Assembly: GCF_041361465.1 (NCBI RefSeq)
Contig: NZ_JBGKAC010000001.1
Location: forward strand, 2,790,001-2,854,000
Source: Halobaculum sp. MBLA0143
GTDB taxonomy: Archaea; Halobacteriota; Halobacteria; Halobacteriales; Haloferacaceae
Direction: 5' to 3'
DNA length: 64,000 nt
Positions 18,873 to 25,769 of this stretch are shown piece after piece (the first letter of the stretch is position 1; each line of letters opens with the position of its first letter). A program made the translations under genes and the position numbers. The notes beneath the pieces were generated by a model, which was given only the letters and a program-made list of their open reading frames with translations, searched no databases and had not been told where the DNA came from.

Positions 18873-19166
18873 TCAGGGGTGATCCGTCTCTTTGCGGGTC
18901 GCCAGCCGGTCGTAACAGTCCAAGACATGGTCGAAGTACTCTTCTGTCATCAGCTGTGGGTTGTCGATGCGGTGGAAGTCGTCCAAGAGAAACGCCGTCT
19001 CCTCCCGGTCGAGCCCGTACGCGTGGAACGCCGCGGCGTCCACCTCCGCACGCAGCCGCGCACGCGCTTCTGGCTCAGCTACGGCCTCGAACCCTCCTAA
19101 TCGGTCGCGCATCTCCGCGAACGCCTCCCCGTAGCAGTTGAGCCGAGCCGCACGCCGCGAGGTAAG
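18873..19166 (-). pseudogene. C-terminal fragment of the interrupted restriction-modification gene
   Basis: The minus-strand frame reads RRAARLNCYGEAFAEMRDRL, then DREETAFLLDDFHRIDNPQL, and ends RLATRKETDHP. The LNCYGEAFAEM and FHRIDNPQ blocks are typical of the C-terminus of large Eco57I-type methylase/restriction proteins. Its missing upstream part is the fragment at 21991-25636, on the same strand beyond the inserted IS block. It has no proper start of its own. Confidence 0.7.
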
Positions 19167-19170
19167 CTAA

Positions 19171-19190
19171 CCCACCCCTAAAGGGGTGGG
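19171..19190. repeat. IS hairpin 1 (end of downstream tnpB element)
   Basis: The palindrome cccacccctaaaggggtggg has 8-bp perfect arms. It overlaps the last codons of the 19178-20419 tnpB gene and marks the element's right end next to the restriction-gene fragment. Confidence 0.75.
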
Positions 19191-20419
19191 CTTTCAGCGT
19201 GGACTCCCGTTCTGGCCGAGTCATCGGCAGGCGAATATTCGCCGTTCACGTTCACCATCCCGCTGTTCAAGCGCACGCCTACGAGTGCGCCTCCACCAGC
19301 CCCAGTTTGGTTCTGACGGAGAAACCGCAAACCGATGTTCTTTGCTGCGTTGTAGTCCGCGTCGTTCTGGTACTCACAGTTCAAACACTCGAACTGCGCT
19401 CCCTCCCGGTTGTCAGGGTGAGTGAACCCACACTCGGAACACCGTCGTGACGTGTTCTTCGGGTTCACTTGTTCGACACGCAGCCCGTACGCTTCGGCTT
19501 TGTACTCGACGTACTCGTACAGTCGGTCGAACGCCCACTTGTGGCCCCACGACGCCCCTGTCCGCTCTCGGATGTCGGTCAGGTCCTCGAAGGCAATCAC
19601 CGTACAGCCGTTCTCACGAGCCTCTGCGACCAGTTCGTTGCTGATACGATGGAGCATCAGCGTGAACCGACCTTTTTCTTTGCGTCCGACTGACTGGATG
19701 GTCTCGTGTGCCCACCGCGTGCCGTGGTCTTGCAGGTCGCCACGCCGTTTCTCGTATTCTCTGCGCCAGTGGTCGAACTCGTTCCCTGTCCAAAACCGGC
19801 CTGTGCTAGTGACGGCAAGTTGGTTCACGCCGAGGTCAACCCCGAGAACCGTTCCGTTCTCGGTGGCTGCCTGTGCCGACGTGTTAATCTCCACGTCTGC
19901 TGTGCAACAGATGTGAAGTTGCCACTCACTGTGTTGCCGGTGAAGTTCTGCACTAGTAATATTGTAGTCGTCGTTGAACAGGTATTGCTCGTGGGGCGTG
20001 TCCGTCGTATCCTCGGGTAGTACGTAGTCGGCCTCGATTCGCCCGTCGACTGTGGCGAGGCTCACGTACTCGTCGTGGAACGTGGCCGTCCGCGACTCAT
20101 ACACGAGGTGAGGGCTGCTGAACTGTGGTTTTGACGCTTCCTTACCCTGTTTCCAGCGTTCGACAACGCCTTTGCACGCTTCGGCAGCCTTGTTGCGGGC
20201 CGACTGGACGTGGTTCGAGTGGAGGTCAGTTGCCTTCCGAACGTCGTCGTAGGTGTCGTCGTTGAGCGTGGTCTTGCTCGTGGTGACGTATTCGCCTTGG
20301 AAGGCATGGTCGGTGACGTATTGAGCAGCCCAGAGGAACTGGTCAACGGTGTCTTCGAGAAGTGCAGCGTCGTGACTGTCCACCTCAAGCGTGACGGGAA
20401 CAGTCCGGCGCACTTCCAT
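19178..20419 (-). CDS. tnpB: RNA-guided endonuclease TnpB (element B)
   Basis: The 413-residue TnpB carries all RuvC parts: [17 protein letters not shown] (RuvC-I Asp), [15 protein letters not shown] (RuvC-II Glu) and [15 protein letters not shown] (RuvC-III Asp). It also has a four-cysteine zinc finger, [13 protein letters not shown] to [10 protein letters not shown]. Nothing is visibly truncated. TnpB nucleases cut DNA next to a short motif, guided by an RNA made from the element's right end. The C-terminus (HAESPPL) runs into the right-end hairpin. Activity is unproven. Confidence 0.9.
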
Positions 20420-20454
20420 GTCTCATATGTATTGTTACTCACTCTTGACATCCT

Positions 20455-20474
20455 CCCACCCCTGAAGGGGTGGG
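20455..20474. repeat. IS hairpin 2 (between the two tnpB genes)
   Basis: The palindrome cccacccctgaaggggtggg lies 20 bp after the stop of the upstream tnpB (element A) and 35 bp before the start of element B's tnpB. It is probably the right end of element A abutting the left end of B. Confidence 0.75.
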
Positions 20475-20493
20475 ATTCCCGAGCGTTGGGATA

Positions 20494-21750
20494 TTACGGT
20501 TTGCAGGCCCCCTGTTCTCTCGGTGTGAACCGACCGCTCTCACGGTCGAACAGGAAGACTCCGGGCTGTGCCAAGCAGCCGTTACTTATATCCCCAGCTG
20601 GGGGACTCTGAGTTATCTTTCTCCGGATGTTCACCGCACCATTCACGTCTGCATTCATCGTCGTCTCACACGACGAACAGACATACAGCCCACGCTCCAC
20701 GCGGTTCGCGTCACGGATCTGTCCACAACACGAACACGTCTTCGAGGTGTTTTCTTCATCCACCCAATCAACAAGGATACCGCGTTCCTCCGCCTTGTAC
20801 TCCAGCAACCGGGTGAACCGGGCGAACTCCCACCCGTGGAGTTTCTTGTTCCCCGACGCGCCCCAATTCCGAGAGTCACCATTCTCGTCTTCGCGGATGC
20901 CTGTGAGGTCTCCAACAGCAATCTTCTCCACGCCTTCTTCCACGCATCGCTTGACGATGTGCTTCGAGAGGGTGTGAAGGAAGTGATCCTTGCGTCGGGA
21001 CAGTTTCCGACGAGCCTTCTGAGCACGACGTGACGGGCCCTTCTCGCCTTCCGTCTGGTACTCTTCTCGAGTGAAGTAGTGCTTGTCCTGTTTCAGTGTG
21101 TTCCCCGGATACAACTCTGGAGAACCACCCTCGAAGTCGATGGCGAGGTAGTTGCTGATACCGAGGTCGATACCCGCTGTCTTGTCGCCAGGGGCGTTTT
21201 CGACAGGAATCTGCTTTCGACAGACGAGGTGGAGTTCCCACTCGTCACCGTTCCAGACGGCCCGCGCTTGCTGGATGTTCTCGACTTCCACGTCAGGGCG
21301 TGTCTCGTATTCTGCGAGGATGAAGTCAGACCGCGACTCTCTCAGGTTGAAGCCTTTTGAGAGGCGGAGCTGGCCGTGTTTAGTGTCGTGCCTGATTCCG
21401 TTTTGCTTCCACGTCACGGTGGAGCGTGGGTGATCATCGCCGTACTTCCGGTAGCCTGGTGGGTTCGCGTCGTCGTCGGAGTCAAACCAGCTGGTGAACG
21501 CTTCAGCAAGTTCTTCGAGAACTCGCTGACTTGACTGCGAGTGCAGGTCACTGTAGCGTTCGTGGTGTTTCAACTCCGATTTCAGCTCGGCTTCGTCGGG
21601 AATCTCACCGTCATCATCCCACCGTTGTTGGATATAGTAGCGACCGACGTTCCACAGTTTGGATGCGGAGAATCCGCACTGGTCGAGGTCGTCACGAACC
21701 TGCCGGTGGTTCGTGATGCGTGCGACGTACGTGCGGGTCGTCTCCAGCAT
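20494..21750 (-). CDS. tnpB: RNA-guided endonuclease TnpB (element A)
   Basis: This 418-residue TnpB is clearly diverged from its neighbour. It has TAGIDLGISNYLAIDFEGG (RuvC-I), KIAVGDLTGIREDENG (RuvC-II, with Asp where Glu is commonest), KTCSCCGQIRDANR to YVCSSCETTM (zinc finger) and NADVNGAVNIRRKI (RuvC-III). The ATG at 21750 (MLETTRTYVARI) was preferred over a longer frame. The tail after RuvC-III (LAQPGVFLFDRESGRFTPRE) is typical of haloarchaeal IS1341 proteins. The GDL in motif II deserves checking, but I cannot call it inactive. Confidence 0.9.
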   Translation of the reverse strand: MLETTRTYVARITNHRQVRDDLDQCGFSASKLWNVGRYYIQQRWDDDGEIPDEAELKSELKHHERYSDLHSQSSQRVLEELAEAFTSWFDSDDDANPPGYRKYGDDHPRSTVTWKQNGIRHDTKHGQLRLSKGFNLRESRSDFILAEYETRPDVEVENIQQARAVWNGDEWELHLVCRKQIPVENAPGDKTAGIDLGISNYLAIDFEGGSPELYPGNTLKQDKHYFTREEYQTEGEKGPSRRAQKARRKLSRRKDHFLHTLSKHIVKRCVEEGVEKIAVGDLTGIREDENGDSRNWGASGNKKLHGWEFARFTRLLEYKAEERGILVDWVDEENTSKTCSCCGQIRDANRVERGLYVCSSCETTMNADVNGAVNIRRKITQSPPAGDISNGCLAQPGVFLFDRESGRFTPREQGACKP

Positions 21751-21861
21751 TGTACTGTGTTCATAACGTGTTATGAGGATTCCACTATTAAACCCTGTGT
21801 TCGGAGTAGAATATCCAGCCAAGCGTTTGCGTGTGGGTAGGTTCCGTGTTGTCGACTTCAT

Positions 21862-21881
21862 CCCACCCCTAAAGGGGTGGG
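21862..21881. repeat. IS hairpin 3
   Basis: The palindrome cccacccctaaaggggtggg lies upstream of element A's tnpB. It has no tnpB of its own between it and hairpin 4, so it looks like a leftover right end from an earlier insertion or a short non-coding element. Confidence 0.7.
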
Positions 21882-21962
21882 TTTTTGCCTTGTGATTCTA
21901 TAAACATTGGGAGTCAGTCGGTCGTCGTACAGTGGTTCGGGTCTCGCGCGTGTCGGCTTCCT

Positions 21963-21982
21963 CCCACCCCTAAAGGGGTGGG
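21963..21982. repeat. IS hairpin 4 (next to the restriction gene)
   Basis: The palindrome cccacccctaaaggggtggg is followed by tttccgccttg, close to hairpin 3's tttttgccttg. It directly abuts restriction-gene coding sequence and so marks the other border of the IS block. Confidence 0.7.
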
Positions 21983-21990
21983 TTTCCGCC

Positions 21991-24900
21991 TTGCTCCGCT
22001 ATGAACTCGAACCAGTCGTCGCCTGCGGTGAGGTGTGGCACCGGAGCTCCTTCGAACTTGTAGCGGGCGATGTTGGTGTCGATCCTCGTCTTCATGAAGT
22101 AGTCGAGCGGAATCGAGTTGAGAATCCCCAGTAGCGCGAACAGCTCACGGTCTGTGAAGGCTCGCTCGTACACCCCGTGGAGTGGGAACTGTTGGAGGTC
22201 GTCGGCCGTCGGCGCTATCTCGTAGGGTCGGATCGTAGTGAGGGCGTGATAGCAGATGACCCCCGGCGGAAGGACGGCCGCGATCAGCGTCCGCTCGTTG
22301 GCCGAGTTGGTAATGTTCCTGTACGCGATACGGTATTCCGTGCAGTCGAGGAGTACGTCTTCCTCGGACAACGGGCGTCCGCGTTCGTCTTCGAGTAACT
22401 CGTCGACGAACGACTTCATGCTCCCGTTGCTCGCCTCGCCGTCGAAGCTGTCGTAGATGGCGCGCTTCAGACGGCCGAGACTCTTCTCCCGTACCCGTCT
22501 CTTGGCACTTCTGTCCGGGTCCCGACTCTCGGCGACGCTCCAGTACTCCGGTTCTTCGAGGTCTAGAACACTGTCGTCGTGGACGAACTGGTGCATATTG
22601 CTCCCGCCGTACACCGGATAGTCGGCGTTCTCGCGGTCTTCGCTGAAGTACTCGGAGTCTCGGGTGTAGATCTCGATGTGGCCGTCTGCCCGCCAACTGC
22701 CGTCGACGGACTCACCCACTGGGTCGTGGCGTAACAGCGTCTCTAGCACGTCGACCTCGCTCTGTGACGAGACCTTGGGGAAGGTGAGCGCCTCTGGCGA
22801 GTAGCGTTGGATCAGCTCTGGCGTTACACGGACCGTCTCTGTGCGGTAGTTCTGAAGCGTTCCGACGTCGTGCTGTCCGAACGTTGCTCGGAACGACTCC
22901 GTACACCCGGTGTTCTGGAACACCGTCACGGCAAACTGAAACTGACGATGGAGCGAAGCGAAGATCCCCCTGTTCTCGAAGCCGACGACAGCGTCGAGAC
23001 GCTTCTGATCGAGAAGATGCGAGCGCAGCCGCTTCGCCGAAGCGTTCGAGAAGATTTTGTTGGGTAGCACCTTCGCAACGTACCCGTCCTCGTTCGTCAG
23101 GTCGAACACCCGTTCGAGAAACAGCATACTGAGATCGTTCCGCCCCGTTCTCGTCTGCCCGTCTATCTCGCCCCACTGGAGGTTGTAGGCTGGCCCGTCG
23201 GTGAAGTACGTCGCCCGTCGTTGAATGTTCTGTTCGTACGTCTCCCACGCCGTTTGTATCTCGGGATCGTCCCGGAGTTCGGACTCAACTTTGTCTTTCA
23301 CTGTGGGTTCGAGCGAACGAAAGTCGGACCTGTACCGACTGAAGAATTCATCACGACGTGGCTGGAGCATGTCCCAGGGTGGGTTTGCGACAACGATGTC
23401 GAAACCACCATCTGCGTACACTGGTGCGAACTCCAACACCCAGTGGAACGGGTCGAACGACTGGATCTGTTCCAGCGACACGTCGAGCCCAGCCTCACGG
23501 AACTGTTGGTGAATCTTCTCGTCTAGCGCTGGTCTGTGCTCGTCTTTCCGCCGTTCCGCCTCCTGGAGGTGCTGTCTCGCAGCGACGGTGTCGCTCGCGG
23601 CGCTGTGTTCGTCCACCGCTTCGATTACGTCACCATACCGCTCTCGAACAGAGTCGGCACCCCAGTTGTCAAGCACAGCCTGGCTGCCGTTCTCTCCGCT
23701 GTCGCTGCCGGTCGTCTCCACGAGGTCGGTGAACCCGATCAGACTGTTACCCTGCTGGACGTTGAACACGATATTCGGGAGTGCGAGGTCGTCGTCTTCC
23801 GCGGCGGCGAACGTTCCAGGCTCCACCTCGGAGACAATCGACAGCCACAGCCGAAGTTTGGCGACCTCTACGGCGGGCTGCACCACGTCGACACCGTAGA
23901 TGTTCTCGACGACGGTATTTCTCCGAAGCCGCCAGGTCGGCGGAGTCTCGTTTCGAGGGTCGTCGGCGGATAGTTCACCGTAGGCGGCGTCGTACAGCGC
24001 CTTCCGGACGCGAACGATCTCACTCTCGACAGACGTGAGAAAGTGACCAGAGCCACACGCGGGGTCCAGTGCCCGAAACTCGTCGACGACATCGTCGACA
24101 ATCTCTTCGACGAGCGCCGTGTTGGGGGGGGAGTGAGCCGATCAGATCGAACACGTCGTCGGCGTCTGTGAGCATCGACTCCGTGTAGCCGTGTTCGTGT
24201 CGAAGGTGAGACCCGATCTCCTCGCGGAGCCGTGGCAACACCGTCTGCTCGGCACAGAACCGCGTTATCTCGTCTGGCGTGTAGTACGCGCCCAACTCCT
24301 TCTTCTGATCGCCGGTGTCTGTCGTGATGTAGTTGATCGTCTTCTCGAACACGTTCCCGAGTACACTCGGATCGAGTGCCGACGGTCCGCCATCGGTCGA
24401 GAACTCGTAGCGTTCGAGCAGGTCGAGCAGGTCGAACAACACGTCGTCGACGACATCGAACGCCGTGTCGTCCACGTCGGCGTCGTAGTTGACTGCCGGC
24501 CGGAACAGCCCGCCGTTGAGGTACGGCATCTCGGAGTACCGTGTGATGGTCTCGATCCGTCGACTCCGGTCGTCTCTGCGCTCGTCGAACACCCCGAAGA
24601 ACAACGGTTCGAGGTACGTCTCGTACAGTGACCGCGGCACGTCGGACTCCCGATGTTCGGCGGCAATCTTCTCGAGAAGCCCAGACTCCACGAGGTCGCG
24701 GTCCTCGAGGAACTTCACGAACACGAGTCGGTTGACGAGACCGATCGCGAACAGCCGCACGTCGTCACCGGTCGCTTCCGACGGTGCGACGACCCCGTCC
24801 CCGACCAAGCTCCGTCCGATGTGCTCGTCGTCACCCGGCGCACGACCGAAGACGTGCGCGACGTACTCATCGTAGAACTGATCGGTGATCTCTGCGCGGC

Positions 24901-25636
24901 GTCGGCTGACGATCCGGTCTGCATCCCGGGCTGTCGTGACGACGTTGTCCAGTTCGAACCCGGCGACGAACCGTTCCAGTGTCGTCCGCGTGTCGTCGGT
25001 GTCCCACTCTTCGGGAGCGACATCGACCCCGGTCTGTTCGGCGAAAATGTGACGCACGACCGGACGGAGGTCCACCCCGGCGAGCCTGTCTAAGCTGTAC
25101 GTATCTCGATCGTATCTGACGAGCACCCATCGCAGCCCGTCGGTTGCGACACCGAACTCCGCCTCAAATGGGCGGTACGACAGCCAGTCGAGCACCTGGC
25201 CGAGACCGTGTCTGTCTCGATCGAGCGACTTGTTCAGCGGTTCGGCTTCGAAAAGTAACTGTCGAGAGTCTACACCGTCGTACGGCTGGAACGACGCGGC
25301 GTAGTCTGCTTGATCCCCTCGGCGGTCGGAGAGGTCCCCGACCTCGTGTGCGAGTTCGTCGTACCCGAGCGCATCCAGCATCGGCTCGACGAACACGCGA
25401 CACGCCAGCGGCTCTGGCTCCTCCCGCCGTGCAGCGTCGGACTCCCGGAGCACTCGGTCATCACAGAGTAGTTCTGCCGCAGTCTCGTCGTCGACGACCG
25501 CCGCACGGAATCGCTTGACCGCCCGACGGAGTGTCGACTCGACGGTGTCGACCCCCTCGTCGGTGACCGTCGTTTCGACTGCCTCCGCGAGAAACTCCGT
25601 CTGCGTGACATCTCCCGGCGATGGCCCCTCTCTCAT
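21991..25636 (-). pseudogene. Type IIG-like restriction-modification protein, frameshifted and IS-interrupted
   Basis: From the ATG at 25636 (MREGPSPGDV) the frame gives a putative nuclease domain (PMLDALGYDELAHEV, RQLLFEAEPLNKSLD), helical parts and KELGAYYTPDEITRFCAEQT. It then leaves frame at a run of eight G (24124-24131; C on the coding strand). One frame over, coding resumes with DPACGSGHFLTSVE (methylase motif I), DIVVANPPWDM (motif IV) and a target-recognition-like half. It stops at the IS block after DDWFEFIAEQ. Removing one C restores LPPNTALVEEIVDD across the tract. The C-terminus is at 18873-19166. Confidence 0.8.
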
Positions 25637-25769
25637 CGTTTCTCTTGTGTCTGCCTCCCCACTAGCGTATGAATCCCCGTCTCCCAGCCCCCGACAGCCC
25701 GCTCGCGTCGTCACGACGGCGGTTCCACGCAGTTTTTAACCCGCCTCCCCCCTACCACACGGCAGACAG

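What the first reader, a model, noticed from the sequence alone, without database searches (positions are those of the whole stretch)
19162..21990. Tandem stack of TnpB elements with four right-end hairpins but two tnpB genes
Four near-identical 20-bp hairpins punctuate one insertion. Two follow tnpB genes; the two at 21862 and 21963 have no tnpB between them and share flanking sequence. This looks like repeated insertion at the same place, with older copies reduced to right-end scars, or like a short non-coding derivative. Neither element has a tnpA.
Basis: partly seen in the sequence, partly recalled or inferred. Interest (0 to 1): 0.55.

Follow-up and report, generated by a model that had tools for sequence, protein, structure and literature searches.

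The report
Nested pair of TnpB insertion elements
One small mobile element carrying an RNA-guided nuclease gene has landed inside another, which itself interrupts a DNA-methyltransferase gene; each element simply has a hairpin at both ends, so the four hairpins are ordinary.

Summary
The four hairpins are real, but they are not right-end scars. Each of the two tnpB-only IS200/IS605-type elements has one hairpin at its left end and one at its right end. The outer element is 19162-22000 (minus strand; hairpins 21963 and 19171). The inner element is 20445-21899 (minus; hairpins 21862 and 20455) and sits inside the outer one, between its left end and its tnpB. Uninterrupted outer-family copies in this genome (L002) and in the same genus (L084, L144) show the unoccupied site; removing the inner element at exactly those bases fits best. 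The outer element interrupts a type IIG-like methyltransferase gene; rejoining its flanks restores the frame seen in an intact relative. Cleavage and guide tetranucleotides at all four ends follow the IS608 pattern. The genome has no detectable TnpA, so mobility must have come in trans. The inner insertion point, TTTAT, coincides with the probable TATA box of the outer tnpB. IS605-type elements nested in one another were already counted in Haloquadratum (PMC3119063). Ordinary, with neat details: a relocated catalytic glutamate in the inner TnpB, a promoter-splitting insertion and an operator-like dyad.

The parts
19162..22000 (-). outer tnpB-only element, left end at 22000, right end at 19162 (1384 bp once the inner element is taken out)
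   Evidence: ends fixed by single copies L002, L084, L085, L144 and by the restored reading frame of the interrupted gene
20445..21899 (-). inner tnpB-only element (1455 bp), nested in the outer element between its left end and its tnpB
   Evidence: 28 of 30 inner-family loci (the window's own counted) align through the same right end; boundary test best at exactly these ends
22001..22005 (-). target of outer element, TTCAT
   Evidence: same TTCAT at L002 and L144; TCAT in other outer-family copies with a GAAA guide
21963..21982 (-). left-end hairpin of the outer element; guide GAAA at 21983-21986
21900..21904 (-). target of inner element, TTTAT; also the probable TATA box of the outer tnpB (-30 to -26 before the ATG once the inner element is removed)
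21862..21881 (-). left-end hairpin of the inner element; guide AAAA at 21882-21885
21762..21775 (-). dyad CATAAC-AC-GTTATG between the probable TATA box and start of the inner tnpB
20494..21750 (-). inner tnpB (RuvC glutamate in the alternative position)
   Evidence: Pfam, NCBIfam and solved-structure matches; residue comparison
20454..20618 (-). guide RNA scaffold of the inner element, Rfam RF02656 (sot0042)
   Evidence: 91.5 bits, gathering 88
20455..20474 (-). right-end hairpin of the inner element; guide GAAT at 20475-20478, cleavage site TCAA at 20445-20448
19178..20419 (-). outer tnpB (canonical D-E-D); its stop lies in the right-end hairpin
19171..19190 (-). right-end hairpin of the outer element; guide AAAG at 19191-19194, cleavage site TTAC at 19162-19165
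22001..25714 (-). upstream part of the interrupted type IIG-like restriction-methyltransferase gene; also has a frame break near 24122-24129
18873..19161 (-). downstream (C-terminal) part of the same gene
   Evidence: tblastn of the intact 1194-aa relative in L024

Best explanation
Two different tnpB-only (IS1341-type) members of the IS200/IS605 superfamily are nested. The outer element inserted 3' of TTCAT in a type IIG-like methyltransferase gene. Later the inner element, of another TnpB family, inserted 3' of TTTAT in the outer element, between its left-end hairpin and its tnpB. Each element has a left and a right subterminal hairpin, giving four in all. Shown: exact ends, unoccupied sites, nesting, target and guide tetranucleotides. 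Inferred: single-strand transposition by a TnpA acting in trans (this genome has none now; same-genus genomes do); TnpB plus right-end RNA cutting the emptied site so that the element is copied back; loss of the outer tnpB's own TATA box, which would leave it silent or dependent on read-through.
For: Uninterrupted outer copy in the same genome, L002, 88% identical, about 33 bp where the window has about 1490 bp. Same-genus uninterrupted copies L084 and L144; L144 keeps TTTAT at the site. Of 441 boundary pairs tried, the exact ends score best against L144 and tie with one other pair for best against L084. Outer unoccupied site: joined flanks read DDWFEFI/SRRAARLNC, same length as DDWFDDIATRAARLNC in intact L024. 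Guide/cleavage rule: right ends 42 of 47 scored, left ends 36 of 47 scored, of 61 examined each. IS608 pairs read in PMC5934647 (passages). TnpB: NCBIfam guided_TnpB, 204 bits (inner) and 164 bits (outer). RF02656 at the inner right end.
Against: No TnpA in this genome (97.2% complete), so present mobility is not shown. The outer right end gave no Rfam guide-RNA hit at E up to 1. The guide classes in the outer family need only one change on the TnpB tree, so that covariation is few independent events and the permutation control overstates it. No transcript data.
Confidence: 0.96

Rival explanations
1. One reading: repeated insertion at one target, older copies reduced to right-end scars, or a short non-coding derivative (a PATE, palindrome-associated terminal-only element) between 21862 and 21963.
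For: Two hairpins 101 bp apart with similar flanks. Terminal-only PATEs of about 52 bp are described in Haloquadratum (PMC3119063, passages).
Against: The 21907-22007 segment with its hairpin is the left end of single outer copies L002, L084, L144 at the same distance from the same tnpB. The 21862 hairpin is the left end in inner-family copies. Left-end guides AAAA and GAAA differ from right-end guides GAAT and AAAG.
Confidence: 0.02
2. One composite element with two tnpB genes that moves as a unit.
For: Both genes run in the same direction and hairpins bracket the whole.
Against: Among 147 genomes searched, inner and outer matches were listed at separate places except in this locus; of 61 loci whose flanks were searched, only the two entries that are this window show a full-length tnpB of the other family next to the element.
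Confidence: 0.02

Closest known systems
IS200/IS605 superfamily, tnpB-only IS1341-type elements of haloarchaea (ISNph, ISHwa types in PMC3119063)
   Same: near-terminal palindromes, no target duplication, tnpB without tnpA, diverse low-copy families
   Different: nothing essential; two families happen to be nested
IS608 (ISHp608)
   Same: guide/cleavage pairs AAAG/TTAC and GAAT/TCAA, guides 5' of the hairpins (PMC5934647, passages)
   Different: outer right end uses TTAC/AAAG (the left pair in IS608); left ends use TCAT/GAAA or TTAT/AAAA; no tnpA
MGE-into-MGE insertions in Haloquadratum walsbyi (PMC3119063, Table 5)
   Same: IS605-type element inside an IS605-type element, 5 of 192 events
   Different: here the unoccupied site is resolved to the base and lies on the probable TATA box
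TnpBs with relocated RuvC glutamate (Ealt; PMC10711439)
   Same: inner TnpB lacks the canonical Glu (G283) and has Glu six residues before the zinc finger (E335)
   Different: RuvC-I motif is DLG, not the DPG of pro-Fanzors; IS605-type rather than IS607 ends

Membership tests
IS200/IS605 superfamily | subterminal hairpin at each end | tested here: met
IS200/IS605 superfamily | insertion 3' of a short target without target duplication | tested here: met
   unoccupied sites for outer and inner
IS200/IS605 superfamily | guide tetranucleotide 5' of hairpin pairs with cleavage site | tested here: met
   all four ends in the window; right ends 42 of 47, left ends 36 of 47 scored loci; position rule is my reading of the IS608 pairs
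IS200/IS605 superfamily | Y1 (HUH) transposase TnpA (in autonomous members) | tested here: not met
   none in the element or the genome; filed therefore only as tnpB-only IS1341-type, moved in trans; 87 of 147 genomes have one
TnpB nuclease (outer) | RuvC D-E-D and zinc ribbon | tested here: met
   D195, E278, D355, two CxxC
TnpB nuclease (inner) | RuvC D-E-D and zinc ribbon | tested here: met
   D198, D371, two CxxC; canonical Glu is G283 but E335 is invariant in 26 of 26 aligned members and Pro in 24 of 24 outer members; fits the published Ealt pattern
TnpB guide RNA (sot RNA) | structured RNA overlapping the 3' end of tnpB | tested here: met
   inner: RF02656; outer: no hit
PATE (terminal-only element) | fused left and right ends without a gene | tested here: not met
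TnpB nuclease | RNA-guided cutting of the emptied site | not testable with these tools
   needs an assay

The most novel reading that the evidence does not exclude
The inner family's target motif (TTAT) matches the haloarchaeal TATA box, so an inner element that lands there splits the core promoter of another TnpB element, and its guide RNA then carries the outer promoter sequence as its target. One RNA-guided element would thus silence a rival TnpB family and cut its unoccupied copies, a direct conflict between two TnpB families.
Probability: 0.1. Interest if true: 0.5.

Novelty: new member of a known kind. Interest (0 to 1): 0.25.

Why it matters
It corrects the reading of hairpin pairs in haloarchaeal-type genomes: left ends look like right-end scars unless single copies are compared. 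It gives a base-exact case of an RNA-guided element inserted in the probable promoter of another, and two end types whose target and guide letters change together.

Tried and rejected
Scar and PATE readings: rejected by single copies and unoccupied sites. Composite double-tnpB unit: rejected. Dead TnpB (repressor-like) for the inner protein because the canonical Glu is Gly: not favoured, since an alternative Glu is invariant. Other nested cases: flanks of 61 loci were searched for further TnpB; L061, L093 and L100 have TnpB pieces within about 30 nt of an end, but L093 rejoined did not restore a tnpB frame. Guide-RNA targets: TAM plus inner guide, up to 3 mismatches in 147 genomes: 3 places, namely the window's own junction, a weak site in G048, and the uninterrupted outer-family copy in G002 with 3 mismatches. 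TAM plus outer guide: the own junction and five weak sites, with matches in the reversed-pattern control too. First left-end count looked too close to the hairpin and gave 6 of 47; one search uses the distances seen. The guide/target covariation in the outer family is one change on the tree. The automatic stem finder ran into the guides; it was replaced by a fixed 8/4/8 stem.

Full report
Observation. Four hairpins at 19171, 20455, 21862 and 21963 are real: a pattern search with up to 2 mismatches gives 8 matches (four palindromic sites on both strands) against 0.00 expected in 100 shuffles. In the whole genome (3.58 Mb, 97.2% complete) the same kind of pattern has 8 sites, and the reversed-pattern control none. 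Four are in this locus, one is the left end of the copy at about C1:2971705-2973084, two bracket one tnpB on contig C2 (207786 and 209354), and one lies beside another tnpB at C1:1368254. Both window tnpB genes are on the minus strand, so left and right below follow the minus strand.

What it is. The outer element has a single copy elsewhere in the genome, L002: 88% identical over 1280 bp including the right end, and a second block of 101 bp (82%) that matches window 21907-22007, that is, the hairpin at 21963 with its flanks. Between these blocks L002 has about 33 bp where the window has about 1490 bp. L002 sits in a creatininase-like gene (my reading of the flanks, not searched); its tnpB has an in-frame stop at codon 77 and its right hairpin is decayed. 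Same-genus copies L084 (G001) and L144 (G002) are also uninterrupted. L144 reads CATTTATGACTGAGCAACGATACATATGAGACATGG where the window reads AATGTTTAT, inner element, GAGTGAGTAACAATACATATGAGACATGG. When 21 by 21 pairs of boundary shifts were tried, removal of exactly 20445-21899 scored best against L144 and tied for best with one other pair against L084.

Inner element. Of 30 inner-family loci fetched (the window's own counted), 28 align through the same right end, most reading GGATGTCAA, and left ends start 3' of TTAT in most. The extra hairpins are therefore left ends: 21963 for the outer and 21862 for the inner element.

The interrupted gene. The outer element splits a gene matching Eco57I-type and PADLOC type IIG models. 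The intact relative in L024 (same genus, 1194 aa) covers window frames on both sides: 75% identity just upstream, 72% downstream. The joined flanks read DDWFEFI/SRRAARLNC against DDWFDDIATRAARLNC. The window gene has a further frame break near 24122-24129, so it is broken twice; the order of events is not known.

How the ends work. In IS608 the cleavage sites pair with guide tetranucleotides just 5' of the hairpins: TTAC with AAAG at the left and TCAA with GAAT at the right; insertion is 3' of TTAC (PMC5934647, passages). The window has TCAT/GAAA (outer left), TTAC/AAAG (outer right), TTAT/AAAA (inner left) and TCAA/GAAT (inner right). I read from the IS608 pairs that guide position 1 is complementary to site position 2, and position 4 to position 4; that position rule is my inference. 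Right ends: 42 of 47 scored loci fit (61 examined, 14 dropped because the end was not aligned; shuffled guides gave at most 35 in 10,000). The five misses are L072, L079, L081, L082 and L002. Left ends: 36 of 47 scored fit (61 examined, 14 dropped for no hairpin or an unaligned start; shuffled at most 29). Of the 37 with guide AAAA, AATA or GAAA, 9 of 9 G-type have TCAT and 27 of 28 A-type have TTAT. Against over-reading: on the TnpB tree the outer-family guide classes need one change only, so independent events are few. Three of 30 TnpA-bearing loci from relatives (L135, L139, L142) have TTAC/AAAG left and TCAG/GAAC right, found by a scan that itself demands the rule.

Transposase. No Y1 transposase is found in the genome, while 87 of 147 genomes searched, including three same-genus ones, have it. 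Movement in trans is inferred. The Haloquadratum paper reports a similar puzzle of mobile IS605-type elements where tnpA copies are broken (PMC3119063, passages).

TnpB. The outer TnpB has D195, E278, D355. In the inner TnpB (numbers count from 21759; subtract 3 for the ATG at 21750) the canonical Glu is G283, Gly in 25 of 26 aligned members. E335, six residues before the zinc finger, is invariant in 26 of 26, while the outer family has Pro in 24 of 24. This fits the published alternative-glutamate pattern with a DLG motif (PMC10711439, passages). So both proteins look catalytically complete. The inner right end matches Rfam RF02656 above its gathering score. In ISDra2 the guide is about 16 nt of flank after the right end, and the motif for cutting equals the target site (PMC8612924, passages). 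By that rule the inner guide would be outer-element sequence.

Promoter. Upstream of outer-family tnpB genes an A+T-rich box lies at about -29 to -23 (24 loci besides the window; window A+T 0.34). Without the inner element the window has TTTAT at -30 to -26. The inner element inserted directly 3' of it, so the outer tnpB now has inner right-end sequence there. That the box is a TATA box, and that the outer gene is now silent or read through, is inference.

Known or new. Nested IS605-type elements were counted before: 5 of 192 insertions of one mobile element into another in Haloquadratum. Searches for print on TnpB elements at TATA boxes or nested insertions (listings only) showed nothing closer, in an open-licence library only. 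I file it as a new member of a known kind.

Noticed in passing
21762-21775 and inner-family loci L053-L082: Operator-like dyad CATAAS-NN-STTATG between a TATA-like box and the tnpB start in the inner family; the innermost pair swaps C-G for G-C symmetrically (20 of 28 complementary against a mean of 10.2 in shuffles; 2 of 30 loci lack the region and about 3 rows were matched at the wrong place by my pattern). Its arms contain TTAT, the element's own target motif.
   Followed up: partly
window 22001-25714 and 18873-19161: Type IIG-like restriction-methyltransferase gene broken twice: element insertion and a frame break near 24122-24129.
   Followed up: partly
L002 (about C1:2971705-2973084): Second outer-family copy has a stop at tnpB codon 77 and a decayed right-end hairpin; it seems to interrupt a creatininase-like gene.
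   Followed up: partly
L013 (C2:207786-209373): Another tnpB bracketed by the same kind of hairpins; RuvC motifs look altered (ALDVG, HADLDAS).
   Followed up: no
L102-L109: Outer-family relatives with long hairpin ends (AAGGAGCGAG type) instead of the 8/4/8 hairpin.
   Followed up: no
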